Source of the DNA: Methylothermaceae bacterium
Lineage (GTDB): Bacteria; Pseudomonadota; Gammaproteobacteria; Methylococcales; Methylothermaceae
Assembly (NCBI GenBank): GCA_026981855.1
Contig: JALSIB010000020.1
Location: forward strand, 1-64,000
Length of the DNA: 64,000 nt
Direction: 5' to 3'
The notes under the pieces were generated by a model, which saw only the letters and a list, made by a program, of their open reading frames with translations, had not been told where the DNA came from and searched no databases. This document shows positions 4,615 through 60,997 of the stretch, piece by piece. The position numbers and the translations under genes were made by a program. Numbering within the stretch: the stretch's first letter is position 1; each line of letters starts with the position of its first letter.

Positions 4615-7600
4615 TTATGGCTGTCTGGAAGGTGCGAACCATTTATACAGCGCTGGAATCACCAGCAAGGTCAGCACCGTGGAGGTGAACAGTCCGCCGA
4701 TCACCACCGTCGCCAGGGGGCGCTGGACCTCGGAGCCCGTGCCCGATGCCAGCAGCAGGGGGATCAGCCCCAGGGCGGTGGTGACGGCGGTCATCAGTAC
4801 CGGCCGCAGCCGCAGGCAGGCGCCGCGAATGGAGGCCTCGTCCAGGGACAGGCCATCCCCCCTCAACTGGTTCAGATAGGTGACCAGCACCATGCCGTTT
4901 TCCAGTGCGATCCCGAACAGGGCGATAAAGCCCACCGAGGCAGGCACCGAGAGGTGCTGGCCCGACAGCGCCAGCGCCAATACGCCGCCCACCAGCGCCA
5001 ACGGAATGTTGAGCAGGATCAGGGCGGTGTTCTTCAGCGACCCGAAGCTGCTGTAGAGCAGCAGCGCCACCCCCAGGAGGGTGATCGGCACCACCACCGC
5101 CAGGCGCTTGTTGGCCTCCTGCTGAAGGCGAAACTGGCCACCCCAGGTGACCAGGTAACCGGGCGGCAAATCCACGGACTGGTCGATCGCCTGCCGGGCC
5201 TCGGCGACGAAGGAGCCAATGTCGCGGCCGACCACGTTGGCCTGGATGGTGATGAAGCGCTGGTTGTTCTCCCGGGTGATCTGTCTTGGTCCCACCAGTT
5301 CCTTGATTTCGGCCACCTGGGAAAGGGGAACCCGGATGCCGTCCGGTCCCGGAATCAGCAGTTCGGCGATGGCCTGCGGGGTGGCCCGGGCATCCTTGCG
5401 GTAGCGGACGTAGATGTCGAAGCGGCGGATGCCCTCGAACACCTGTCCCGCCGTCTCGCCGCCGACCGCGGCCCGCAGGGTGTCTTGCACATCCTCGATG
5501 TTGAGCCCATAGCGGGCCACCTGTTCCCGGTCCGGGCGGATCAACAGCTGCGGCGTCCCGCTCACCTGGGCCACCTGGACGTCGGCCGCGCCCTCGACCT
5601 TGCCGATCACGGCAGCAATGTCGTCGGCCTTGTCTTTGAGCACCTCCAGGTCGTCGCCGAACAGTTTGATGGCCAGTTCCGCCCGCACCCCTTCCAGCAG
5701 TTCATCTACGGTCATCTCGATGGGCTGGGTCAGGTTGACCAGGATACCCGGCAGGTCATGCAGGGTTTCGCGCACCTGTTCCTCCACGAATTCCTGGTCC
5801 CCCGGACGCCGCCACTGCTCCTTGGGTCTGAGCAGGACATACATCTCCGCCGAGTTGACCGGATCGGTATGGGCGCCCACTTCACCGCGGCCGATCCGGC
5901 TGGTGACCCCGGTGATTTCGGGAATGGCCATCAGACGCTTCTCGGCGATCAGGGTCAGACGCTTGGTTTCCTCGATGGCGATGGAAGGGGCCATGGTCAG
6001 GCGGACCACCAGGGTGCCTTCCCGCAGCTTGGGCGTGAACTCGGAACCGAGGAAAGGGAACACGACAGCGCCGATCACCAACAACGCCAGCGACAGGATC
6101 ACGGCCACCTTGCGATGGTGGACGAACCAGGTGACCCAGGGCCGGTAGATATTCAACAGTTTTCGCACCAGCCAGACTTCTTCTCCCTTCTCCTTCTGGG
6201 AGAGAGGCCGGGGGAGAGGGCGATCATCGGAGTTTATCTTTATCCCAACCCCTTCCCCTCGAGAAGGGGGGGTCTTCCGCCCGCTTCTACGCCGCAACAA
6301 TAGATTGCTGATGGCCGGAGCCGCCACCAGGGCGTAGATGAGCGAGCCCAGCATCGCCAGGGCGACGGTGTAGGCCAGCGGCCGGAAGGTCTTGCCTTCC
6401 ACGCCCTGGAGGGTGAACAGGGGCAGGAACACCAGGATGATGATGGCGATGGCGAACACGATCGGCCGGCCCACTTCCAGGCAGGCCCGGCGCACCACGT
6501 GCCAGCGGGGTTCGTCTGCCGGGGAAGTGGCCAAGTGGCGGTCCACGTTCTCGACGATGACGATGGTGCCGTCCACCATCATGCCGATGGCGATCGCCAA
6601 GCCCCCCAGCGACATCAGATTGGCCGACATCCCCAGCCATTTCATGGCGATGAAGGCAAACAGGACCGAGAAGGGAATCGCCACCGCCACCACGATGCTG
6701 GGACGGAAGCCACCCATGAAAGCCAGCAGCACCAGAGCCACCAGCACCACGCCCTGTACCAGGGCCGAAGTCACGGTGGCGACCGAAGCCTCGACGATGT
6801 CCTTCTGCTGGTAGTAGGGGTTGATCCGCACCCCTTCCGGGAGGGCGTTGTTGATCTCGGCGATCTTCTTCTCCACCCGTTCGATCACGGTGGAGGCATT
6901 GGTGCCATAGAGCTTGATCACCATGCCGGCGACCACCTCCCCCTCACCGTTGCGGGTCTGGAGTCCGTAGCGGATCGCCCCGCCGATGCGAAGATCCCCC
7001 AGCTGGCGCAGATACACTGGCCGACCGTCCACGGTCTTGACCACGATCTCGGCCAGATCGTCCAGCCCCCGTGCCAGCCCCACCGAGCGCACGATCAACT
7101 GTTCGGCGTTGCGCTCCAGATATTGGGCGCCGACGTTGAGGTTGTTGGCCTCTATGCGACGGATGACTTCTGCCAGGGTCAGGTCGTAGCGCAGCAGAGC
7201 ATCGGGATCGATGACCACCTGGAACTGCTTCTCGAACCCGCCGATCCCCAGTACCTCGGTGACGCCCGGCACGGTCTGGAGATTGAACTTGACGATCCAG
7301 TCCTGCATCGTTCGCAGTTCTTCCAGCGAATAGTTGCCGGTCGTGTCTTCCAGGTAGTAGAACAGGACCAGTCCCATGCCGGTGGAGATCGGTCCCATCT
7401 GGGGGTTGCCGAATCCCTGGGGGATCTCCTGTCGCGCCTCCTGCAGCCTTTCGCCCACCAGTTGGCGGGCGAAATAGATGTCCATGTCGTCCTTGAAGTA
7501 GATGTTGACCACCGACAGGCCGAAGTTGGACACCGAGCGGATTTTCTCGATCCCCGGCAGCCCCGTCATCGCCGCTTCCAGCGGATAGGTGACGTACATC

Positions 7601-7785
7601 TCGATTTCGTTCGGCGCCAGCCCTTCGGTCACGGTGAACACCTGGACCAGATTGGGGGAAACGTCCGGGAAGGCGTCCACCGGCAACTGGCGATAGTTGT
7701 AGTAACCCGCCGCGCACACGCCGATCAGCAACAGCACCACCAGCAGCCGGTTGCGGAGGGAAAATTCAATGAGTCTGTCGATCAT
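4615..7785 (-). CDS. CusA/CzcA-family heavy-metal efflux RND pump
   Basis: A 1056-residue inner-membrane proton antiporter of the heavy-metal RND family. The N-terminus MIDRLIEFSLRNRLLVVLLL and the following LPVDAFPDVSPNLVQVFT are diagnostic. GGLAIAIGMMVDGTIVIVEN near residue 397 is the TM4 region carrying the acidic proton-relay residues. A second RND repeat begins at LGSEFTPKLREGTLVV. The family pumps Zn/Co/Cd/Ni or Cu/Ag; the metal is not resolved here. An insertion of about 31 residues (near 505-535, reading PPSRGEG...PLPRPLSQKEKG) lies in the cytoplasmic linker between the halves and is encoded by a dispersed DNA repeat. It is last in a czcC'-czcB-czcA order. Confidence 0.92.
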   Translation of the reverse strand: MIDRLIEFSLRNRLLVVLLLIGVCAAGYYNYRQLPVDAFPDVSPNLVQVFTVTEGLAPNEIEMYVTYPLEAAMTGLPGIEKIRSVSNFGLSVVNIYFKDDMDIYFARQLVGERLQEARQEIPQGFGNPQMGPISTGMGLVLFYYLEDTTGNYSLEELRTMQDWIVKFNLQTVPGVTEVLGIGGFEKQFQVVIDPDALLRYDLTLAEVIRRIEANNLNVGAQYLERNAEQLIVRSVGLARGLDDLAEIVVKTVDGRPVYLRQLGDLRIGGAIRYGLQTRNGEGEVVAGMVIKLYGTNASTVIERVEKKIAEINNALPEGVRINPYYQQKDIVEASVATVTSALVQGVVLVALVLLAFMGGFRPSIVVAVAIPFSVLFAFIAMKWLGMSANLMSLGGLAIAIGMMVDGTIVIVENVDRHLATSPADEPRWHVVRRACLEVGRPIVFAIAIIILVFLPLFTLQGVEGKTFRPLAYTVALAMLGSLIYALVAAPAISNLLLRRRSGRKTPPSRGEGVGIKINSDDRPLPRPLSQKEKGEEVWLVRKLLNIYRPWVTWFVHHRKVAVILSLALLVIGAVVFPFLGSEFTPKLREGTLVVRLTMAPSIAIEETKRLTLIAEKRLMAIPEITGVTSRIGRGEVGAHTDPVNSAEMYVLLRPKEQWRRPGDQEFVEEQVRETLHDLPGILVNLTQPIEMTVDELLEGVRAELAIKLFGDDLEVLKDKADDIAAVIGKVEGAADVQVAQVSGTPQLLIRPDREQVARYGLNIEDVQDTLRAAVGGETAGQVFEGIRRFDIYVRYRKDARATPQAIAELLIPGPDGIRVPLSQVAEIKELVGPRQITRENNQRFITIQANVVGRDIGSFVAEARQAIDQSVDLPPGYLVTWGGQFRLQQEANKRLAVVVPITLLGVALLLYSSFGSLKNTALILLNIPLALVGGVLALALSGQHLSVPASVGFIALFGIALENGMVLVTYLNQLRGDGLSLDEASIRGACLRLRPVLMTAVTTALGLIPLLLASGTGSEVQRPLATVVIGGLFTSTVLTLLVIPALYKWFAPSRQP
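6179..6272 (-). repeat. GA/CT-rich dispersed repeat translated within the RND pump gene
   Basis: About 94 nt, a multiple-of-three insertion as judged by the intact reading frame. It contains CT-rich and GA-rich arms (6181-6205 and 6249-6272) able to pair locally. On the minus strand the segment around CCCCCGGCCTCTCTCCCA then AAGGGAGAA matches the intergenic copy at 19233-19277. The encoded peptide is low complexity and polar. This kind of 'PLPLSQ/EG' repeat is common between genes in gammaproteobacteria but unusual inside a conserved transporter. Confidence 0.6.
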
Positions 7786-9740: not shown

Positions 9741-11084
9741 TCATAGCACCGTCGGCTGTTTTTCCAAACGTCCGATCCCGTAATAGTGGAACCCCATTTC
9801 CCGCAGCGTTTGTGGATCGTAAATGTTTCTTCCGTCGAAGATGACCGGTTGCCTGAGGAGGGTTTTCAGCCGGTTGAAATCCGGGCTGCGGAAGAGATTC
9901 CATTCGGTCACCACGGCCAGGGCGTCGGAATCTTCCGCGGCGGCTTCGGGGGAATCCACCAGGATCAGGTCGTCTTTTTCCCCGTAGATCCGCCGGGCTT
10001 CGTCCATGGCGACCGGGTCGTAGGCCCGGACGCGGGCGCCGGCTTCCCACAGGGATTCCATCAGTACCCGGCTGGGCGCTTCGCGCATGTCGTCGGTGTT
10101 GGGTTTGAACGCCAGGCCCCACAGGGCGATGGTCCGGCCTTCGAGATCGCCGTTGAAATGGTCGTGGATCTTTTCGAACAGGCGCCGTTTCTGGCGCTGG
10201 TTGACCGCCTCGACGGCGGACAGGAGACGGGCCTCGTAGCCGACTTCCCGGGCCGTCCTTTCGAGGGCTGACACGTCCTTGGGAAAACAGGAGCCGCCAT
10301 AGCCGCATCCCGGATAGATGAAGGCGTATCCGATGCGGCTGTCTGAGCCGATGCCCTTCCGAACCTGTTCGATGTCGGCCCCCAGGCGCTCGGCCAGGTT
10401 GGCCAGTTCGTTCATGAAGCTGATCTTGGTGGCCAACATGGCGTTGGCGGCGTATTTGGTCAGCTCCGCCGATCGGATGTCCATCGCCACCATCCGGTCA
10501 TGGTTGCGGTTGAAGGGGGCGTAGAGGGCGCGCAGAAGTTCCGTGGTACGGGGGTTGTCGGTGCCGATGACGATGCGGTCCGGTTTCATGAAATCGTCGA
10601 TGGCCGCGCCTTCCTTGAGAAATTCCGGGTTGGAAACCACGTCGAATTCGACTTTCCGTCCCCGTTCCGCCAAGGTTTCGCGGATCCGTTGGCGTACCTT
10701 GTCGGCCGTGCCCACCGGGACTGTGGACTTGTCGACCACGATGCGGTATTCGTCCATATGCTCGGCGATGGTTTCGGCGACCGCCAGCACGTATCTAAGA
10801 TCCGCCGAACCGTCCTCGTCGGGAGGCGTGCCGACGGCGATGAACTGGAACAGCCCGTGTCCCACCGCCTCGGCCGGGTCGGTGGTGAAGCTGAGGCGGC
10901 CTGCGGCGGCGTTGCGTTCGACCAGTTTGTCCAGGTCGGGTTCGTAGATGGGAATGACACCCTCCCGCAACTGACCGATCTTGTGTTCGTCCACGTCCAT
11001 GCACAGGACTTCGTTGCCGACTTCCGCCAGGCAGGCGCCGGTGACCAGGCCAACGTATCCTGTCCCGAAAATGGTTACTTTCAT
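9741..11084 (-). CDS. ugd: UDP-glucose 6-dehydrogenase
   Basis: A 447-residue NAD-dependent enzyme oxidising UDP-glucose to UDP-glucuronate for capsule or exopolysaccharide precursors. The N-terminal Rossmann motif [20 protein letters not shown] is exact for the family. The catalytic cysteine sits in [13 protein letters not shown] near residue 260, and the C-terminal nucleotide domain has [15 protein letters not shown]. The in-frame region upstream of ATG 11084 has no family similarity, so the shorter start is used. An extended -10 (TGCTATCAT) lies about 110 nt upstream. It is the first gene of the minus-strand run leading into the metal-efflux genes. Confidence 0.95.
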
Positions 11085-14181: not shown

Positions 14182-15726
14182 TTGAGCCGCAGACTTTTCA
14201 GATCCACCGCCATTGTCGGCGCCATGACCATGGTTTCCCGGGTGCTGGGATTCATCCGCGACGTGGTGATCGCCTTCCTGTTCGGGGCCGATGCCGCCAC
14301 CGATGCTTTTTTCGTTGCCTTCAAGATTCCCAATTTTCTGCGCCGTTTGTTTGCCGAGGGCGCCTTCTCCCAGGCTTTCGTGCCGGTCATGGCCGAGTAC
14401 AAGGAGCAGCGCAGCGGGGCGGAACTGAAACAATTGCTCGACCGCACGGCCGGCTCCCTGGCGTTGGTATTGATGGGGGTGACGATCCTGGGGGTGGTGG
14501 GGGCTGCCTGGGTGATTCTTCTGTTCGCCCCGGGTTTTTCCCGCCACGGGGCGCAATTCGATCTGGCGGTGCAAATGTTGCGGATCACTTTTCCCTATCT
14601 GTTTTTCATCTCCTCCACCGCCCTGGCCGGGGGGATTCTCAATACCTTCAATCGTTTCGCGGTACCGGCCTTCACGCCGGTGTTGCTCAACCTGTGCCTG
14701 ATTTCGGCCGCCTTCTGGCTGGCCCCCCGTCTGCCGGAACCGGTGACGGCACTGGCCTGGGGGGTGTTCGCCGCCGGGGCGGCGCAACTGCTGTTCCAGT
14801 TTCCGGCGCTTTGGCGATTGCGGTTGCTGCCCCGGCTGCGGTACGGGTTCCACGATCCGGGGGTGCGCCGGATCCTCAAGTTGATGTTGCCGGCCCTGTT
14901 CGGGGTCTCGGTGACCCAGATCAATCTGTTGATTGATACGTTGCTGGCTTCGTTCTTGCCCCACGGCAGTATTTCCTGGTTGTATTATTCTGACCGGTTG
15001 GTGGAGTTTCCCTTGGGTGTGTTCGGCATCGCCCTGGCGACGGTGATCCTGCCCAATCTTTCCAAGGACTGGGCGGCAGGCCGGCACGAGGCCTTCTCGG
15101 CTTCCATCGACTGGGGGCTGCGCTGGGTGGCCCTGATCGGACTGCCGGCGGCGGTGGGTCTGTTCGTATTGGCCGAGCCGATTCTTTCGACCCTCTTTCA
15201 ATACCATTCCTTCACTGCCCGCGACGTTCACATGGCGGGCTTGAGCCTGATGGCCTATTCGGTGGGCCTGGTGGGGTTCATCCTGGTCAAGATCCTGGTG
15301 CCCGGCTTCACCTCGAGACAGGATACGCGGACGCCGGTTCGTTACGGTGTCTATGCGATGGTGGTCAACCTGATTCTCAATTTCAGCCTGATCTGGACCC
15401 TGGCCCACGCCGGACTGGCGCTGGCGACCTCGCTGGCGGCGTGCGTCAATGGAGGTTTGCTGCTTCGGGGGTTGCGAAAGGCGGGGGTTTACCGGCCCGC
15501 CGGGGGGTGGTGGCTGTTTCTGTCGCGGTTGATTCTCGCCAACGCCGCGATGGGGGCGGTGCTGTATCATTATGCCGGTCCCCTGGACTGGACCGGCTGG
15601 GGGATAAGGGAGCGGATATTCCACCTGTTGTGGTGGATCGGCATTGGCGCGGGCATCTACGTTTTGACCTTGCTGATGACTGGAATTCATCGCAGCTTCC
15701 GCCGGCCTGCAAGGCTCGGGCCGTGA
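14182..15726 (+). CDS. murJ: Lipid II flippase MurJ
   Basis: A 514-residue polytopic inner-membrane flippase of the MOP superfamily that moves lipid II to the periplasmic face for peptidoglycan synthesis. The typical start SRRLFRSTAIVGAMTMVSR and the loop FRDVVIA-type segment 'GFIRDVVIAFLFGADAATDA' are clear, followed by FKIPNFLRRLFAEGAFSQAF. Fourteen hydrophobic segments are expected and the length matches. TTG 14182 is chosen as start because AAGAGGGG lies just upstream and it gives the family N-terminus; no ATG fits. In related bacteria murJ is normally followed directly by ribF, but here a 3.4-kb gene intervenes. Confidence 0.93.
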   Translation: MSRRLFRSTAIVGAMTMVSRVLGFIRDVVIAFLFGADAATDAFFVAFKIPNFLRRLFAEGAFSQAFVPVMAEYKEQRSGAELKQLLDRTAGSLALVLMGVTILGVVGAAWVILLFAPGFSRHGAQFDLAVQMLRITFPYLFFISSTALAGGILNTFNRFAVPAFTPVLLNLCLISAAFWLAPRLPEPVTALAWGVFAAGAAQLLFQFPALWRLRLLPRLRYGFHDPGVRRILKLMLPALFGVSVTQINLLIDTLLASFLPHGSISWLYYSDRLVEFPLGVFGIALATVILPNLSKDWAAGRHEAFSASIDWGLRWVALIGLPAAVGLFVLAEPILSTLFQYHSFTARDVHMAGLSLMAYSVGLVGFILVKILVPGFTSRQDTRTPVRYGVYAMVVNLILNFSLIWTLAHAGLALATSLAACVNGGLLLRGLRKAGVYRPAGGWWLFLSRLILANAAMGAVLYHYAGPLDWTGWGIRERIFHLLWWIGIGAGIYVLTLLMTGIHRSFRRPARLGP

Positions 15727-15762: not shown

Positions 15763-18700
15763 ATGGAAATGCGACGACGCAGGGCTGATTTCTGGCTGCT
15801 TTTGGGCTATGGGCTGTTGCTGGTCTACGGCACCCTGTTTCCCCTCGATCCCGTGGATGGGTCCGCTTCGGTGGATTGGCGCCGGCTGTTCGACTGGAGA
15901 GGCGCATGGGCGCGGCTTTCGCTTTCGGACGTGCTGGTCAATCTGCTCGTCTATCTGCCTTGGGGCTATCTGTTAAGCCGGCGCCTGGAGCGGTTGCCGG
16001 GGTCGGCGGCTTTTTGGCTGACCGTGGCGGCGGGGGGGCTGCTGAGCATTACGCTGGAATACATCCAGCTGTATCTGCCGGCCCGGGTCTCGTCTTTCAG
16101 CGACATCGTGCTCAATACGGTGGGTACGGCGGCAGGTGCGCTCATCGCCATGAGTTTGCGCCATGCCTCGTCAGGCCGCCGGCTGCGGCGACTGCGGGCG
16201 CGCCTTGTGATTCCGGGTGGGGTGGGGGATCTGGGGCTGTTGGTGCTCGGAGCCTGGGCACTGTCGGAGTTGACGCCCTTGGTTCCTTCTCTGGACTTCG
16301 GGATTCTGAAACAGGGGGTGAAGCCTTTGTTTCTGGCCTTGCGGGATTCAGAGCGGATTCAATGGCACAAGATGGCGGCCTATGCCCTCAATTTGACGGC
16401 ATTGGGGCTGGTGCTGCGGACGATTCTGCGTTTCCGGTCGTTTTTCTGGCGCGCGTTCCTTGTCGCGTTCGCAGGCGTGTTGTTGCTGAAAATTCCAGTG
16501 GTGAGCCGTCAACTGGGATTGGAGGCATGTCTGGGACTGGGGATGGCGGCGTTTTCCCTGCTGGTGCTGAATGGTTTGGGGGGTTCGGGATGGGTGCCTT
16601 GGGTGGGCGGCGCCGGTGTGCTCGTCGCCAGACTTCTGGAAGCCCTGTCCAAGGGAAGCGGCGACAGCCTGGCGGCCCGTCCTTTCAACTGGGTTCCCTT
16701 CGCCGGCCAGGGAAATGGGATCGCCGGTCTGATCGATATCCTGTCCGGGATCTGGCCCTATCTGGCGCTGGCCTTTTTCGCGCGCCTGGTGGCCTCGTCC
16801 AGATGGGTGCTGTGGTCGGGGGCGCTGGCGGTCTTTACCCTGGCCTTGTTTCTGGAGTGGTGGCAGCAGTTCATTCCCGGCCGTTATCCGGATGCCACCG
16901 ACGCCTATCTGGCGCTCGCCGGTTGGTTGTTCGGCTGGTATTACGCCGCCCGCAATCGAAGCGAGGACGCTGTCACCTGGGAAGAGGGGGGGGCGGTGCC
17001 ATTGTGGGCCTATGGAACGCTGGTGTTGGGCGTGATGGCGGCCATGGTGGCGGCCGGGCTCCAGTCTCCGCGGGAGGTGGCCGATAGCCGGGGGCGGCTT
17101 GCGTTTCCCGACCCGGCGCAACTGAGGGCACCGTCGTTGCCCGCTTTCAGATTCGGGCACCCACGCCTGCCGGCCCCTTCTTTCAGGGAAATCGCTGAAA
17201 TACGCAGGCACAATCCGAGGTTTTTCCAGGTGCATCGTCAACGGGCCAAGGGCGGCAAGGGGGATTTTTTCTCCATCGCCTTGACTGGCCGCATCGATCC
17301 CGCCGCCATTTCCCTGCAGGAAACCACCCATCGTCTGTTGGCGTTGAAATTCAGCTGGCGGGGTCATGAGCAGGGGATGCCGTTGGCACTGGTTTACGAC
17401 TGGCTGTATCCCCGGCTTTCCTTGGCGCAGCGTCGGGCCTTGCAGGAGAAATTGGCCGAAGGTTGCCGCTATCTGATTCACCTGATTCGCAAGGACGCTC
17501 TTTCCCCCTACAACGTCTATCTTTACAACAGCCCCTTCCAGGCGTTGATGGCCGTGGCTATTGCATTGTATGGCGATCATCCCTATGGCGAGCAATGCAT
17601 GGCTTTCACCCACGATTTCTGGAAGCGGCGGGTGCTTCCAGTGTGGCGTCAGATAATGGGCAGGCATGGTGGCTGGCACGAGGGGGGGGAGTATGTGGGT
17701 ATCGGAATCGGTAGGGCGGTCTATACGGTGCCCGCCATGTGGAGGAAGGCGACCGGCGAGGATTTGTTCCGGACCGAGCCTGGGATTCGCGGTTTCCTCG
17801 ACTTCCTGATCTATCGCTATCGGCCGGATGGTTTCCACATGCGGTGGGGGGATGGCGCATTTTTCAACAAGTGGGTTCCCGACCGGTTTCCGTTGGCGCT
17901 TGAATACCGTGACCGGGCCGCCTATGGTTTTTTTGGCTGCCTGCGGCGTTTCGGGCCGACGGCCTGGCCGTGGGGGCCTTTGCCCGACAAAAGCCTGTGT
18001 GACCGCGGTGCCTACCAAAGTCTTCCCCTGCAGAAAAGGTTCGACGGCATCGGGATGGTGATCGCCCGCAGCGACTGGGGCCAAGACGCCACCTATGTCA
18101 CCTTCAAGGCCGGGGACAATTATTGGTCCCACACCCACCTGGATCAGGGGGCTTTCACGCTTTACAAGGGCGGACCCCTGGCGATCGACAGCGGGCTGTA
18201 TGGTCCCAGATACGGCTCCGACCATCACATGAACTACAGTTATCAAACCATCGCTCACAATGTCGTCACCGTGACCGATCCCGACGACGATGCGCCCCTG
18301 CCGCCCAAGAAAAAGAAGCATTCCCCCCGCCCCATCGCCAATGATGGTGGCCAGCGGCGGGTAGGCTCGGGTTGGGGAAAGCCGGCGCCTGTCGATTTGC
18401 AGGATTGGCGCAGCCAATACGAAACCTATCATACCGGCCGCATTGCCCGCTATTACGAAGGGAATGGGCTGGTGGTGGCGGTTGCCGAATTGACGCCGGC
18501 CTATACCAATGCCCGTTGTGGCAAGGGCGATGCCTTCGACCGGACCTGCCGGGTTTCGCGCTATTGGCGGACTTTCGTCTACGACCGGCGGGAGGATGTG
18601 GTCGTGGTCCATGATGATGTGACCGCTACCCGCGCCGATTTCGTAAAGCGCTCGCTGGTGCATTCTGTCGAACGCCCCAGAATGATCCCCGGCGGCTTTG

Positions 18701-19149
18701 TTCTGGAGGCTTTGCCGAAACCGGCGCTTCACAGAACCGGCGGGCGATTGGAAGTGAAGGTGCTTTTCCCTCAAGGTGCTTATCTCAACTCCGTCGGTGG
18801 CAAAGGGTTCGAGTTTTGGGTGGATGGCAAGAATTACGACGGGAGAGGGGAAGTATGGCGGAAAGTGGCAAGATTGAGAGAACCCAAGCCGGAGCCGGGC
18901 AGGTGGCGGGTGGAGATCGTGCCGCCACAGCAACGGGAGCGGGATCGCTTTCTCATGGTGCTCAAACCGTCGCTTCGTGGGCGGCATAACCCTACCCGCA
19001 TCGTGTCTATCGAGGAAAGGGATGTGGTGGGTTGCCGGCTGGTGGGAGAGGGAAGGTCCGTGACCATGCGGTTTCCCCCGGATCGTCCAGGAGTGCGTAT
19101 CGGTCTGTCATCGGGTGGCAGAATCGATTTGACCCTGCCGCCGGAGTGA
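15763..19149 (+). CDS. VanZ-VanZ membrane protein fused to a heparinase II/III-like domain
   Basis: A 1128-residue fusion. Residues ~10-130 form a VanZ-like domain (YGTLFPLDP, VNLLVYLPWGYLLSR, LEYIQLYLPARVSSFSDIVLN). After several more helices, residues ~305-410 form a second VanZ-like unit (FNWVPFAGQG, LFLEWWQQFIPGRYPDATDA). A last helix near 415-435 leads to a ~690-residue soluble part with an alpha/alpha-toroid-like region (LVYDWLYPRLSLAQRRAL, LYNSPFQALMAVAIALYG) and a beta-sandwich with GDNYWSHTHLDQGAF (783-797) and AIDSGLYGPRYGSDHHMNYS, the heparinase II/III C-terminal pattern of polysaccharide lyases. The catalytic part is probably periplasmic. It begins 36 nt after murJ. The substrate is unknown; an uronic-acid exopolysaccharide is a guess. 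ATG 15769 is an alternative start. Confidence 0.85.
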   Translation: MEMRRRRADFWLLLGYGLLLVYGTLFPLDPVDGSASVDWRRLFDWRGAWARLSLSDVLVNLLVYLPWGYLLSRRLERLPGSAAFWLTVAAGGLLSITLEYIQLYLPARVSSFSDIVLNTVGTAAGALIAMSLRHASSGRRLRRLRARLVIPGGVGDLGLLVLGAWALSELTPLVPSLDFGILKQGVKPLFLALRDSERIQWHKMAAYALNLTALGLVLRTILRFRSFFWRAFLVAFAGVLLLKIPVVSRQLGLEACLGLGMAAFSLLVLNGLGGSGWVPWVGGAGVLVARLLEALSKGSGDSLAARPFNWVPFAGQGNGIAGLIDILSGIWPYLALAFFARLVASSRWVLWSGALAVFTLALFLEWWQQFIPGRYPDATDAYLALAGWLFGWYYAARNRSEDAVTWEEGGAVPLWAYGTLVLGVMAAMVAAGLQSPREVADSRGRLAFPDPAQLRAPSLPAFRFGHPRLPAPSFREIAEIRRHNPRFFQVHRQRAKGGKGDFFSIALTGRIDPAAISLQETTHRLLALKFSWRGHEQGMPLALVYDWLYPRLSLAQRRALQEKLAEGCRYLIHLIRKDALSPYNVYLYNSPFQALMAVAIALYGDHPYGEQCMAFTHDFWKRRVLPVWRQIMGRHGGWHEGGEYVGIGIGRAVYTVPAMWRKATGEDLFRTEPGIRGFLDFLIYRYRPDGFHMRWGDGAFFNKWVPDRFPLALEYRDRAAYGFFGCLRRFGPTAWPWGPLPDKSLCDRGAYQSLPLQKRFDGIGMVIARSDWGQDATYVTFKAGDNYWSHTHLDQGAFTLYKGGPLAIDSGLYGPRYGSDHHMNYSYQTIAHNVVTVTDPDDDAPLPPKKKKHSPRPIANDGGQRRVGSGWGKPAPVDLQDWRSQYETYHTGRIARYYEGNGLVVAVAELTPAYTNARCGKGDAFDRTCRVSRYWRTFVYDRREDVVVVHDDVTATRADFVKRSLVHSVERPRMIPGGFVLEALPKPALHRTGGRLEVKVLFPQGAYLNSVGGKGFEFWVDGKNYDGRGEVWRKVARLREPKPEPGRWRVEIVPPQQRERDRFLMVLKPSLRGRHNPTRIVSIEERDVVGCRLVGEGRSVTMRFPPDRPGVRIGLSSGGRIDLTLPPE

Positions 19150-19232
19150 TGACCGCAAACGTCAACCGCGTGTGGGTTGCCCGGGCGTTTTCTGCCGCGC
19201 CGCCGGGTTTGATCCGGTAAAAGTGGGGGTAT

Positions 19233-19277
19233 GTCTCCCTCATCCCCGGCCCCTCTCCCAAAGGGAGAGGGGAGAAA
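19233..19277. repeat. GA/CT-rich palindromic dispersed repeat upstream of ribF
   Basis: A 10-bp perfect stem (CCCCTCTCCC at 19250-19259 with GGGAGAGGGG at 19263-19272, loop AAA) within a longer CT/GA-rich element. The same element, degenerate, is found inside the RND pump gene at 6179-6272. It lies in the 223-nt gap after the VanZ-heparinase gene. It has no T-run and so is not a standard terminator. Confidence 0.65.
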
Positions 19278-19314
19278 CCGGTTCGTACGATTGCCCTGTC
19301 GAGCTCGTCATCTG

Positions 19315-19345
19315 TTGTGATCGACCGGGATGGATTTGTTAGAAT
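19315..19345 (+). promoter_or_regulatory. Candidate promoter for ribF
   Basis: TTGTGA at 19315-19320 and TAGAAT at 19340-19345, spacing 19 nt, 27 nt before the ribF ATG. The wide spacing makes this a weak call, but ribF likely needs its own promoter because the VanZ-heparinase gene and a repeat separate it from murJ. Confidence 0.28.
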
Positions 19346-19372
19346 GGCGGATTTGGCGAATCGTATGGCGGT

Positions 19373-20329
19373 ATGCAACTCATCCAGGGCCTGAACCGGA
19401 TTCCCTCCCGGGGAACCGTGGCCACCATCGGTACCTTCGACGGGGTTCATCTGGGGCACCGGTATGTCATCGACCGGTTGGCGGAAGTGGGCAAAAGGTT
19501 GAAGTTGCCGGTTACCGTGGTTCTGTTCGAGCCCCAGCCCCGCGAGTACTTCACCGGCTCCGCGGCGCCGGCGCGCCTGACCCGGCTGCGGGAAAAGCTG
19601 GCCCATCTCCGCGAACTGCCGGTGGACCGGGTGTTGTTGCTGCGTTTCAATCGCCGGCTGGCGGCCTTGCCGGCATGGGAATTCATCGGCCGGGTGCTCG
19701 TCGAAGGGCTGGGGGTCAGGCACCTCGTGGTGGGGGACGACTTCCGTTTCGGCTGCAACCGGGAAGGGGATTTCAACTTGCTCAGCCAGGCAGGCGGATC
19801 GCATGGATTCGAGGTGATGTCCATGCCAAGTTTCACCATCGATGGCGTGCGGGTCAGCAGTACCCGCATAAGGGAATTGTTGGAGCGGGGGGATCTTGCC
19901 AGGGCCGCGCGTTATCTGGGGCGGACCTACTCGATGTGCGGGCGGGTGACGACCGGCCGGAGGCGGGGACGTGATCTGGGGTTTCCAACCGCCAACCTGG
20001 ATCCTTGCCGCCGCAAAAGTCCGATCAGCGGCGTGTTCGCAGTCAGGGTGGATGGGCTGGACACCGGTTCCCTGCCAGGGGTGGCCAATGTGGGGGTGCG
20101 TCCCACCGTCGAGGGTGAGGGTGGCCGGGTGCTGCTGGAGGTGCATCTCTTCGACTACGAGGGCGATCTCTATGGCCGCCGGCTGGAAGTGTTTTTTCAT
20201 CATAAGATACGCGAGGAGCGCCGTTTCGCTTCCCTCGACGCACTGCGGAAACAGATAGAGAAGGACGTGGCCCTGGCCCGTCAATGGTTGCAATCTCAGG
20301 AAAACCCATGGACTACAAGAATACTCTGA
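19373..20329 (+). CDS. ribF: Bifunctional riboflavin kinase / FAD synthetase
   Basis: A 318-residue enzyme converting riboflavin to FMN and FMN to FAD. The N-terminal nucleotidyltransferase domain has [16 protein letters not shown] (HxGH-type site), [14 protein letters not shown] and SSTRIRELL. The C-terminal flavokinase has [17 protein letters not shown] and [13 protein letters not shown], with [15 protein letters not shown]. Length is normal. The last 22 nt overlap the ileS start, showing the usual ribF-ileS coupling. Confidence 0.95.
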
Positions 20330-58792: not shown

Positions 58793-59839
58793 ATGGCACT
58801 CATTACCTTGAGACAACTGCTGGATCATGCCGCCGAGAATGGTTATGGCGTGCCTTCGTTCAATATCAACAATATGGAACAAGTGCATGCCATCATGGAA
58901 GCGGCTGATGAAACCGACAGTCCGGCGCTGATGCAAGTCAGCGCCGGTGCCCGCAAATACGCTGGCGCTTACTTCATCCGTCATTTGGTGGCCGCCGCCC
59001 TGGAGCAGTGGCCCCATATTCCCATCGTGGTGCACCAGGACCACGGCGCCGATCCCGGCGTTTGCGCCCGTTCCATCCAGTCCGGTTTCACTTCGGTGAT
59101 GATGGACGGTTCCCTGATGCCCGACATGAAGACTCCCTCCAGTTATGAATACAACGTGGAGGTGACCACCAAGGTGACCGATATGGCGCATGCCTGTGGG
59201 GTCTCCGTGGAGGGGGAACTGGGGTGTCTGGGGTCTTTGGAAAAAGGCGTTTCGGACAAGGGCGAGGCGATCGACAAGGAAATGCTGCTGACCGATCCCG
59301 AACAGGCGGCGGACTTCGTCAAGAAGACCAAGGTGGATGCGCTGGCGGTGGCCATTGGAACCAGCCATGGCGCCTACAAGTTCACCAAGCCCCCCACGGG
59401 CGACATCCTGGCCATCGACCGGATCAAGGAAATCAACGCCCGCATTCCCGACACCCATCTGGTGATGCACGGGTCGTCATCGGTGCCCCAGGAATGGGTC
59501 AAGATCATCCATGACTATGGCGGGGACATCGGGGAAGCCTATGGGGTGCCGGTGGAAGAGATCGTGAAGGGAATCCAGCACGGTGTGCGCAAGGTGAACA
59601 TCGATACCGACCTGCGCCTGGCGTCCACCGGGGCCATTCGCAAGTTCCTGGCGGACAATCCCAAGCAGTTCGATCCCCGCAAGATCTTCGATGCTGCCAC
59701 CAAGGCGATGAAGGACATCTGCAAGGCCCGTTACGAAGCCTTCGGTTGCGCCGGCAACGCTTCCAAGATCAAACCCATCTCCATGGAGGACATGCTCCAG
59801 CGCTATGCCTCCGGCGAGTTGGATCCTCGCATCCAATGA
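58793..59839 (+). CDS. fba: Class II fructose-bisphosphate aldolase, copy 1
   Basis: A 348-residue zinc aldolase of the Calvin-cycle subtype, forming fructose-1,6- and possibly sedoheptulose-1,7-bisphosphate. [11 protein letters not shown] carries zinc/catalytic residues; [25 protein letters not shown] and VNIDTDLRL follow. GAGGAGG is a strong ribosome site. It is followed by a near-identical paralogue after 93 nt. Compared with copy 2 it lacks about six residues in the loop after GCLGSLE. Confidence 0.94.
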
Positions 59840-59932: not shown

Positions 59933-60997
59933 ATGGCACTCATTACTCTGAGACAACTTCTGGATCACGCCGCCGAAAACGGTTACGGCGTCCCGGCGTT
60001 CAACGTCAACAACATGGAACAGGTCCATTCGATCATGGAAGCTGCCGCCGAAGTGGATAGCCCGGTGATCATGCAGGCTTCCGCCGGCGCCCGCAAATAC
60101 GCCGGCGAAGCTTTCTTGCGCCATCTGATCCTGGCGGCGGTGGAACAATGGCCCGATATTCCCATCGTCCTGCATCAAGACCATGGCGCCGATCCCGGGG
60201 TCTGCGCCCGGTCGATCCAGTCCGGTTTTACCTCGGTGATGATGGACGGTTCCCTGATGCCGGATGCCAAGACGCCCGCTTCCTATGAATACAACGTGGA
60301 AGTGACCGCCAAAGTGACCGAAATGGCCCATGCTTGTGGTGTTTCGGTCGAGGGTGAGCTGGGTTGTCTCGGTTCCCTGGAAACCATGCAGGCGGGCAAG
60401 GAAGACGGCGTTGGCGCGGAAGGGGAATTGACCAAGGACATGTTGCTGACCGATCCCGAAGAAGCCGCCGATTTCGTTAGAAAGACCAAGATCGATGCTC
60501 TGGCCATCGCCATTGGCACCAGCCACGGCGCCTACAAGTTCACCCGTCCGCCCACCGGAGACATTCTGGCGATCGAGCGGATCAAGGAGATCCACGCGCG
60601 TATTCCGGATACCCATCTGGTGATGCATGGCTCCTCGTCGGTGCCACAGGACTGGCTGGAAATCATCAACAACTATGGCGGCGACATGGGCCAGACCTAT
60701 GGCGTGCCGGTGGAAGAAATCGTCGAAGGGATCAAGCATGGTGTCCGCAAGGTCAACATCGATACCGATCTGCGCATGGCGTCGACCGGTGCGATGCGTA
60801 AATTCCTGGCGGAAAATCCGAAGGAGTTCGACCCGCGCAAGATCTTCAAGGTCGCCACCGCGGCAATGAAGGATATCTGCAAGGCGCGCTACGAAGCCTT
60901 CGGTTGCGCTGGCCAGGCTTCCAAGATCAAACCGATCTCCCTGGAAGTCATGTACCAAAAGTATGCCGCCGGCGAACTGGACCCCAAAGTCCAATAA
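59933..60997 (+). CDS. fba: Class II fructose-bisphosphate aldolase, copy 2
   Basis: A 354-residue paralogue of the preceding gene, nearly alike from end to end (same [20 protein letters not shown] start). The main difference is the loop near residue 145, [20 protein letters not shown], longer than in copy 1. Catalytic motifs [29 protein letters not shown] and NIDTDLRM are intact, so both should be active. GAGG is upstream of the ATG. It is followed by a strong terminator. Confidence 0.94.

What the first reader, a model, noticed from the sequence alone, without database searches (positions are those of the whole stretch)
15763..19149. VanZ-VanZ-heparinase II/III-like fusion inserted between murJ and ribF
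Seen: a single 1128-residue frame with two VanZ-like units (near 10-130 and 305-410), a final helix and a ~690-residue soluble domain with a heparinase II/III-type core (GDNYWSHTHLDQGAF, AIDSGLYGPRYG). Known: VanZ proteins are small membrane proteins, one linked to teicoplanin resistance, and heparinase-like domains cleave uronic-acid polysaccharides; murJ, ribF, ileS and lspA are usually contiguous. Inference: an envelope-anchored polysaccharide lyase whose membrane part may sense or hold a glycan. I know of no characterised protein with this architecture. ugd (UDP-glucuronate) at 9.7-11.1 kb is a possible but unproven link.
Basis: partly seen in the sequence, partly recalled or inferred. Interest (0 to 1): 0.78.

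Follow-up and report, generated by a model that had tools for sequence, protein, structure and literature searches.

The report
VanZ-heparinase fusion in polysaccharide pathway
A methane-oxidising bacterium and some distant relatives carry one large inner-membrane protein that joins a lipid-handling membrane module (VanZ) to a heparinase-like domain outside the membrane; it probably trims or matures the cell's own, probably sulfated, surface polysaccharide, a combination I found no published description of.

Summary
Window 15763-19149 is one 1128-residue gene with two recognisable VanZ units, a degenerate unit between them, a last transmembrane helix and a heparinase II-like domain. That domain matches heparinase II (PL21) by sequence (E 8e-39) and by modelled fold (E 1.8e-28). 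Its Tyr/His pair and metal-site residues are conserved, as are the VanZ unit 1 active-site residues (19 of 19 fused homologs).

It is not unique to this genome. Homologs occur in 12 of 368 other sampled gammaproteobacterial genomes, mostly inside polysaccharide loci (Wzx, Wzm/Wzt, glycosyltransferases, exosortase, sulfotransferases). In this genus it sits behind murJ, and the matching sulfated-polysaccharide locus lies on another contig. The VanZ module is also fused to a Wzy/O-antigen ligase in related proteins, and the two trees show that modules were exchanged. Two congeners carry the lyase as a separate exported protein, so it works outside the cytoplasm.

Best reading: an inner-membrane maturation enzyme for a Wzy-type, probably sulfated exopolysaccharide. 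The lyase (or C5-epimerase) acts on the nascent chain, and VanZ acts on its lipid carrier. The polysaccharide role is well supported; the chemistry is inferred. The ugd link is not supported. New variant of known kinds.

The parts
15763..19149 (+). VanZ-VanZ(degenerate)-VanZ-heparinase II-like fusion gene, 1128 aa
   Evidence: homologs
15790..16167 (+). VanZ unit 1 (residues 10-135), apparently active: D56, N60, E99, Q102, R108, S111, D114 identical in 19 of 19 fused homologs
   Evidence: Pfam VanZ 16-131; counts; motifs match VanZ-1 as described in PMC12419801
16210..16617 (+). middle membrane segment (residues 150-285), probably a degenerate VanZ unit
   Evidence: no profile match to unit 1; the equivalent region of VanZ-Wzy and VanZ-only relatives gives a third VanZ stretch
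16675..16977 (+). VanZ unit 3 (residues 305-405), partly conserved (Q368, D377, T379 and D380 kept in all 12 of the query's class)
   Evidence: NCBIfam vanZ_1 333-384; hhalign to unit 1, 80.9%, E 1.4e-6
17005..17058 (+). last transmembrane helix (residues 415-432) leading out of the cytoplasm; 13 helices in all, N inside, C outside
   Evidence: model helix 415-432; loop charges
17134..19146 (+). heparinase II-like extracytoplasmic domain (residues 458-1128): alpha toroid then beta sandwich
   Evidence: phmmer to 2fuq E 8e-39; domain model pTM 0.86, Foldseek to heparinase II E 1.8e-28, TMq 0.73
17512..17514 (+). N584, probable carboxylate neutraliser near the HepII His202/Glu205 position (Asn in 19 and His in 2 of 21 sequences)
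   Evidence: Asn neutralisers in related lyases listed in PMC12088678
17692..17694 (+). Y644, aligned with the catalytic Tyr257 of heparinase II
   Evidence: alignment; conservation
18130..18138 (+). H790 (aligned with HepII His406) and H792 (aligned with a HepII metal-site His)
   Evidence: alignment; conservation
18187..18201 (+). D809 (probable metal ligand) and Y813 (probable second Tyr of the double-Tyr motif)
   Evidence: invariant in 21 sequences; motif described in PMC8006597
18256..18258 (+). H832, probable third metal ligand (TIAHN)
   Evidence: invariant in 21 sequences
14224..15726 (+). murJ, lipid II flippase; the fusion gene follows on the same strand in all seven genomes of the genus that carry it (gap -11 to +56 bp, start/stop overlap in four)
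19373..20329 (+). ribF, downstream flank of the slot; followed by ileS and lspA (flank only)

Best explanation
The protein is an inner-membrane enzyme of a lipid-carrier-dependent (Wzx/Wzy-type, exosortase-associated) exopolysaccharide pathway whose product is probably sulfated and contains uronic acid. Thirteen helices forming three VanZ (lipocone) units hold a heparinase II-like domain in the periplasm. The periplasmic domain abstracts the C5 proton of a uronic acid in the cell's own nascent chain and cleaves it by beta-elimination, which would set chain length, trim the chain or clear misrouted polymer. VanZ unit 1, whose active site faces the same side, acts on the phosphate head group of the polyprenol carrier and so releases or recycles the carrier. 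SHOWN: architecture, conserved residues of both active sites, predicted fold, recurrence, link to polysaccharide loci, exchange of the module with a Wzy polymerase/ligase. INFERRED: lyase rather than epimerase chemistry, VanZ enzymatic activity, coupling of the two, sulfation of the substrate.
For: (a) Fold and active site: heparinase II E 8e-39 by sequence and E 1.8e-28 by structure; Tyr644, His790, His792, Asp809 and His832 conserved. (b) VanZ unit 1 active-site residues identical in 19 of 19 fused homologs although the module diverges strongly. (c) Outside this genus, almost every fusion gene with enough sequence around it lies in or near polysaccharide genes: Wzx flippase, GT2, polysaccharide deacetylase (L079), Wzm/Wzt exporter (L078), exosortase, GT4 and asparagine synthase (L087), ATP sulfurylase/APS kinase (L080), sulfotransferases and sulfatase-type genes. 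(d) Homologs of those neighbours make up the host's own Wzy/sulfotransferase locus on contig C57, and exosortase is present in all nine members of the genus searched plus G057. (e) Co-occurrence in 369 genomes: with the sulfatase-type gene 10 of 13 against 0.74 expected, p 8e-12; with the ESDDWGPG protein 8 of 13 against 0.60, p 3.5e-9. (f) The same VanZ module is fused to Wzy_C in relatives, and VanZ and lyase trees conflict, so modules were exchanged. (g) Stand-alone lyases with a signal-peptide-like start in G003 and G009 confirm the extracytoplasmic side.
Against: No activity is measured and the substrate is unknown. In this genus the gene is not in the polysaccharide locus but behind murJ, so its link to that locus rests on other genomes. 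G006 has the locus markers but no heparinase domain, so the lyase is dispensable there. G057 carries the fusion without recognised polysaccharide genes around it. Two homologs (G301 and the second copy in G396) have lost the catalytic Tyr and His. HepII His202/Glu205 are not kept as such. The co-occurrence test does not correct fully for shared ancestry (8 of the 9 families with the fusion also have the sulfatase-type gene). VanZ enzymology is itself a published prediction, not a measurement.
Confidence: 0.55

Rival explanations
1. The soluble domain is a polymer-level C5-epimerase (GlcA to IdoA type), like human dermatan sulfate epimerase 1, and not a lyase. It would work with the sulfotransferases of the pathway to make a heparin- or dermatan-like bacterial polysaccharide.
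For: Human DS-epi1 is in the top ten of the fold search (E 8.4e-19, TMq 0.54). DS-epi1 contains the same Pfam DUF4962, and its catalytic residues and metal site are conserved in heparinase II (PMC8006597). The genes lie in biosynthetic, not catabolic, loci with sulfotransferases.
Against: Heparinase II is clearly closer (22% against 14% identity in the structural alignment; only lyases found by sequence). Lyases are known inside biosynthetic loci (AlgL in alginate, from general knowledge).
Confidence: 0.22
2. VanZ is only an anchor or scaffold that keeps the lyase beside the polymerase/export machinery; it has no chemistry of its own here.
For: In G003 and G009 the lyase lives without VanZ. 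Units 2 and 3 are degenerate.
Against: Unit 1 keeps seven active-site residues in 19 of 19 homologs while most of the module varies. In G003 and G009 a VanZ-Wzy protein is encoded next door, so VanZ is not lost from the system.
Confidence: 0.12
3. The protein serves peptidoglycan or lipid II turnover together with MurJ, not an exopolysaccharide.
For: Directly behind murJ in all seven genomes of the genus that carry the fusion, with start/stop overlap in four. VanZ genes are often near MviN-type flippases (PMC12419801).
Against: No murJ homolog found beside the gene outside the genus, where it lies among polysaccharide genes instead. Heparinase folds act on uronic acids, which peptidoglycan lacks (general knowledge). 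VanZ-1 type, linked to exopolysaccharides rather than peptidoglycan.
Confidence: 0.07
4. A scavenging or defensive lyase that cleaves foreign uronic-acid polysaccharides at the cell surface.
For: Heparinase II homologs of this fold are mostly catabolic, for example in Pedobacter and Bacteroides.
Against: No uptake or uronate catabolism genes recognised around the gene in the genomes examined; neighbours are glycosyltransferases, flippases and exporters. The host is a member of the Methylothermaceae, a family of methane oxidisers (general knowledge). The inner membrane is a poor place to meet foreign polymer.
Confidence: 0.04

Closest known systems
Heparinase II, PL21 (Pedobacter heparinus HepB, 2FUQ)
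   Same: alpha toroid plus beta-sandwich fold, Tyr257/His406 equivalents, metal-site residues
   Different: 22% identity; below the NCBIfam HepB equivalog cut-off (161.6 against 600 bits); His202/Glu205 replaced (Asn584 region); fused to a membrane module and found in biosynthetic loci
VanZ-1 family of the lipocone superfamily (PF04892)
   Same: unit 1 has D/N in helix 2, ExxQ in helix 3, SxxDxxxN in helix 4 (motifs)
   Different: three units in one chain, only the first fully conserved; fused to a polysaccharide lyase, a fusion not mentioned in the text of the lipocone survey (no occurrence of 'lyase' or 'heparinase'; its supplementary tables were not read)
VanZ x3 - Wzy_C (O-antigen ligase/polymerase) fusions of Methylococcales and other Gammaproteobacteria
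   Same: homologous VanZ module, same murJ-ribF slot in G003, G006 and G009, shared neighbours such as a trypsin-like peptidase
   Different: catalytic partner is a membrane polymerase/ligase instead of a periplasmic lyase
Human dermatan sulfate epimerase 1 (6HZN)
   Same: fold, DUF4962 region, Tyr/His and metal site
   Different: 14% identity; acts in the Golgi; no VanZ module

Membership tests
PL21 heparinase II | toroid plus beta-sandwich fold | tested here: met
   Foldseek E 1.8e-28, TMq 0.73
PL21 heparinase II | catalytic Tyr257 and His406 | tested here: met
   Y644 and H790 aligned, kept in 19 of 21
PL21 heparinase II | catalytic His202 and neutraliser Glu205 | tested here: not met
   region reads SPYNVYLY; Asn584 (His in two homologs) likely substitutes
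PL21 heparinase II | score above the curated HepB equivalog cut-off | tested here: not met
   161.6 of 600 bits
PL21 heparinase II | cleaves heparin/heparan sulfate | not testable with these tools
   needs enzyme assay
VanZ (Pfam PF04892, lipocone VanZ-1) | Pfam score above gathering cut-off | tested here: met
   68 bits, cut-off 30.1
VanZ (Pfam PF04892, lipocone VanZ-1) | helix 2 Asn, helix 3 ExxQ, helix 4 Asp/Asn active site | tested here: met
   unit 1, 19 of 19; N118 in 12 of 19, Glu in the other 7; units 2 and 3 only in part
VanZ (Pfam PF04892, lipocone VanZ-1) | lipid head group cleavage or transfer | not testable with these tools
   activity predicted, not measured, in PMC12419801
Glycopeptide-resistance VanZ-A/VanZ-F | score above NCBIfam resistance cut-offs | tested here: not met
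   16.3 of 250 and 14.9 of 375 bits
Dermatan sulfate C5-epimerase | fold, double-Tyr/His and metal site | tested here: inconclusive
   fold and Y644, Y813, H790, H792 present, but shared with lyases
Dermatan sulfate C5-epimerase | epimerises without cleavage | not testable with these tools
   needs NMR/D2O exchange assay

The most novel reading that the evidence does not exclude
A single protein couples cleavage (or epimerisation) of a growing heparin-like, sulfated bacterial polysaccharide to release of its lipid carrier, and the VanZ module is an interchangeable carrier-handling part that evolution has joined to either a lyase or a Wzy polymerase.
Probability: 0.25. Interest if true: 0.82.

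Novelty: new variant of a known kind. Interest (0 to 1): 0.6.

Why it matters
The biochemical role of VanZ is unsolved; a recent survey predicts that it acts on polyprenol-linked head groups in polysaccharide synthesis. A natural fusion of an apparently intact VanZ active site to an enzyme whose polymer chemistry can be assayed gives a handle on that prediction. The swap between lyase and Wzy polymerase/ligase partners on one membrane module strengthens it. The neighbours also point to a sulfated, uronic-acid exopolysaccharide in methanotrophs and other Gammaproteobacteria, which could be a bacterial source of heparin-like polymer and of modifying enzymes.

Tried and rejected
ugd (9741-11084, minus strand) as a functional partner: rejected, not found beside the gene in any congener. 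Vancomycin/teicoplanin resistance: rejected as a filing, scores far below resistance cut-offs. Assembly artefact: rejected, full-length homologs in many assemblies. One-off insertion into a murJ-ribF-ileS-lspA block: rejected, the slot holds a VanZ-bearing gene in the nine genomes of the genus where it is complete and in the truncated G004 contig. Two VanZ units only: extended to three, the middle one degenerate. Outside Gammaproteobacteria: a 399-genome phylum sample gave no further close ortholog. Literature: no paper found that joins VanZ with heparinase in a relevant way; heparinase with exopolysaccharide and exosortase gave none.
Full report
OBSERVATION. The frame 15763-19149 (+) is open over 1128 residues. 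Pfam finds VanZ (two stretches), DUF4962 and Hepar_II_III_C, all above their curated cut-offs. NCBIfam finds a HepB-like region at 592-1093 (E 2e-47, below the equivalog cut-off) and vanZ_1 with its best stretch at 333-384. The Protein Data Bank search gives heparinase II at E 8e-39 over residues 542-1095. The two outer VanZ units match each other (80.9%, E 1.4e-6). The middle segment does not match by profile, but relatives with the same layout show three Pfam VanZ stretches, so I read it as a third, degenerate unit.

TOPOLOGY AND STRUCTURE. The AlphaFold model of the whole protein (pLDDT 77, pTM 0.59) gives helices throughout 1-432 and then a toroid plus beta sandwich. Loop charges across the query's class fit 13 membrane helices with the N terminus inside and the heparinase domain outside; this is a weak test by itself. 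A natural experiment supports it: in G003 and G009 the heparinase domain is a separate protein that starts with a signal-peptide-like segment, and it lies inside the Methylothermaceae clade of the lyase tree (100/100), which is most simply read as loss of the VanZ part. The domain model alone (pTM 0.86) matches heparinase II best (E 1.8e-28, TMq 0.73), then PL15 alginate lyase and exo-heparinase, then human dermatan sulfate epimerase 1 (E 8.4e-19).

ACTIVE SITES. The phmmer alignment puts Tyr257 and His406 of heparinase II on Y644 and H790, and a neighbouring metal-site His on H792; the residue numbers follow from an offset of 25 between chain position and published number, which I derived from the letters of the alignment. 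D809, Y813 and H832 are invariant in 21 sequences. Catalytic residues of HepII and relatives are taken from PMC12088678: HepII uses His202, Tyr257, His406 and Glu205; many relatives use Asn as the neutraliser. Here the His202/Glu205 region reads SPYNVYLY with N584 (His in two homologs). In VanZ unit 1, D56, N60, E99, Q102, R108, S111 and D114 are identical in 19 of 19 fused homologs. These fit the VanZ-1 motifs of the lipocone survey (PMC12419801). Two homologs, G301 and the second tandem copy in G396, have lost both the Tyr and the His (H/V and F) while keeping the metal site, so pseudo-enzymes exist.

DISTRIBUTION. The host falls in Methylothermaceae by its named 70% relative. In its genus, seven of ten genomes carry the fusion directly behind murJ on the same strand (gap -11 to +56 bp, overlap in four; G004 is cut by a contig end). 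G003 and G009 have a separate lyase plus a divergent VanZ-Wzy gene in the slot, and G006 has a VanZ-Wzy homolog and no lyase. In 368 other sampled class genomes 12 carry a close homolog, eleven of them as a full-length fusion and one cut by a contig end. A 399-genome phylum sample added none.

CONTEXT. Outside the genus the gene lies among polysaccharide genes: Wzx flippase, GT2 and deacetylase (L079), Wzm/Wzt exporter (L078), exosortase with asparagine synthase and GT4 (L087), ATP sulfurylase/APS kinase (L080), sulfotransferases and a sulfatase-type protein. G057 is an exception. The host genome has ten sulfotransferase matches and three Wzy_C matches. On contig C57 a Wzy, a sulfotransferase, an ESDDWGPG protein, glycosyltransferases, asparagine synthases and a sulfatase-type gene lie together. 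Most of these have counterparts in the loci that hold the fusion in other genomes, at up to about 64% identity. Exosortase is present in all nine members of the genus searched and in G057. Counted in the 369 class genomes, the fusion co-occurs with the sulfatase-type gene in 10 of 13 (0.74 expected, p 8e-12) and with the ESDDWGPG protein in 8 of 13 (0.60 expected, p 3.5e-9). By family, 8 of the 9 families with the fusion also have the sulfatase-type gene (counted by hand from those tables). Shared ancestry is not fully removed. Of the 21 genomes with the sulfatase-type gene, 17 carry some VanZ-triple protein: ten lyase fusions, four Wzy fusions, three VanZ alone.

MODULE EXCHANGE. In the VanZ tree the query's class of lyase fusions forms one clade (100/100). 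A second class of lyase fusions falls with the VanZ-Wzy proteins on the other side (100/100). In the lyase tree the two classes are mixed (HepA needs 4-5 changes in bootstrap trees, at least 2 forced by well-supported branches). So the membrane module and its partner have been recombined more than once. A secreted trypsin-like peptidase neighbours both kinds of fusion.

MECHANISM. The best account is a periplasmic uronate-chemistry domain tethered to a lipocone module in a Wzy-type polysaccharide pathway. That both active sites are placed on the periplasmic side, that unit 1 is fully conserved, and that the alternative partner of the same module is a polymerase/ligase all suggest work on lipid-linked or nascent chains. 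Whether the chemistry is elimination or C5-epimerisation cannot be settled by sequence: DS-epi1 shares its catalytic residues and metal site with heparinase II (PMC8006597). Closeness to HepII favours a lyase; the presence of sulfotransferases in biosynthetic loci keeps the epimerase alive. The murJ adjacency could reflect use of flipped lipid carriers, or only a stable slot.

VERDICT. Not an artefact, and not a drug-resistance VanZ. A new combination of known domains, recurrent and context-supported, without a published description that I could find. Gene calls in neighbouring loci come from my own simple caller, so exact starts are approximate.

Noticed in passing
L081:13552-17082 and L085:10099-13575: Lyase fusions that have lost both catalytic residues (Tyr to H/V, His to F) but keep the metal site; in G396 the degenerate copy stands in tandem behind an intact one, a likely pseudo-enzyme pair.
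   Followed up: partly
L079:9104-9874 and nine other loci: A secreted trypsin-like peptidase of about 250 aa lies beside VanZ-Hep and VanZ-Wzy genes; all ten genomes searched (nine of the genus plus G057) have it, in the host on another contig (C19).
   Followed up: partly
L079:5730-8656, L077:8070-10952, L086:3420-6393: A cassette of HprK-related kinase A, NTP_transf_5 nucleotidyltransferase and small proteins next to the fusion gene in three genomes; function unknown.
   Followed up: no
L029:4550-6964: An 804-aa protein with three VanZ stretches and no recognised partner domain, in the same murJ-ribF slot as, and convergent with, the lyase fusion.
   Followed up: partly
19149-19373, and inside the frame 4615-7785: Palindromic repeat (CCCCTCTCCCAAAGGGAGAGGGG) between the fusion gene and ribF; a similar-looking repeat seems to be read in frame inside the RND efflux pump gene.
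   Followed up: no
58793-59839 and 59933-60997: Two very similar genes in tandem whose start ([21 protein letters not shown]...) looks like class II fructose-bisphosphate aldolase.
   Followed up: no
L127:8829-9872: ESDDWGPG protein without a Pfam match (relative in L086 tested), a recurrent member of these polysaccharide loci and strongly co-occurring with the sulfatase-type gene (14 of 17 genomes).
   Followed up: partly
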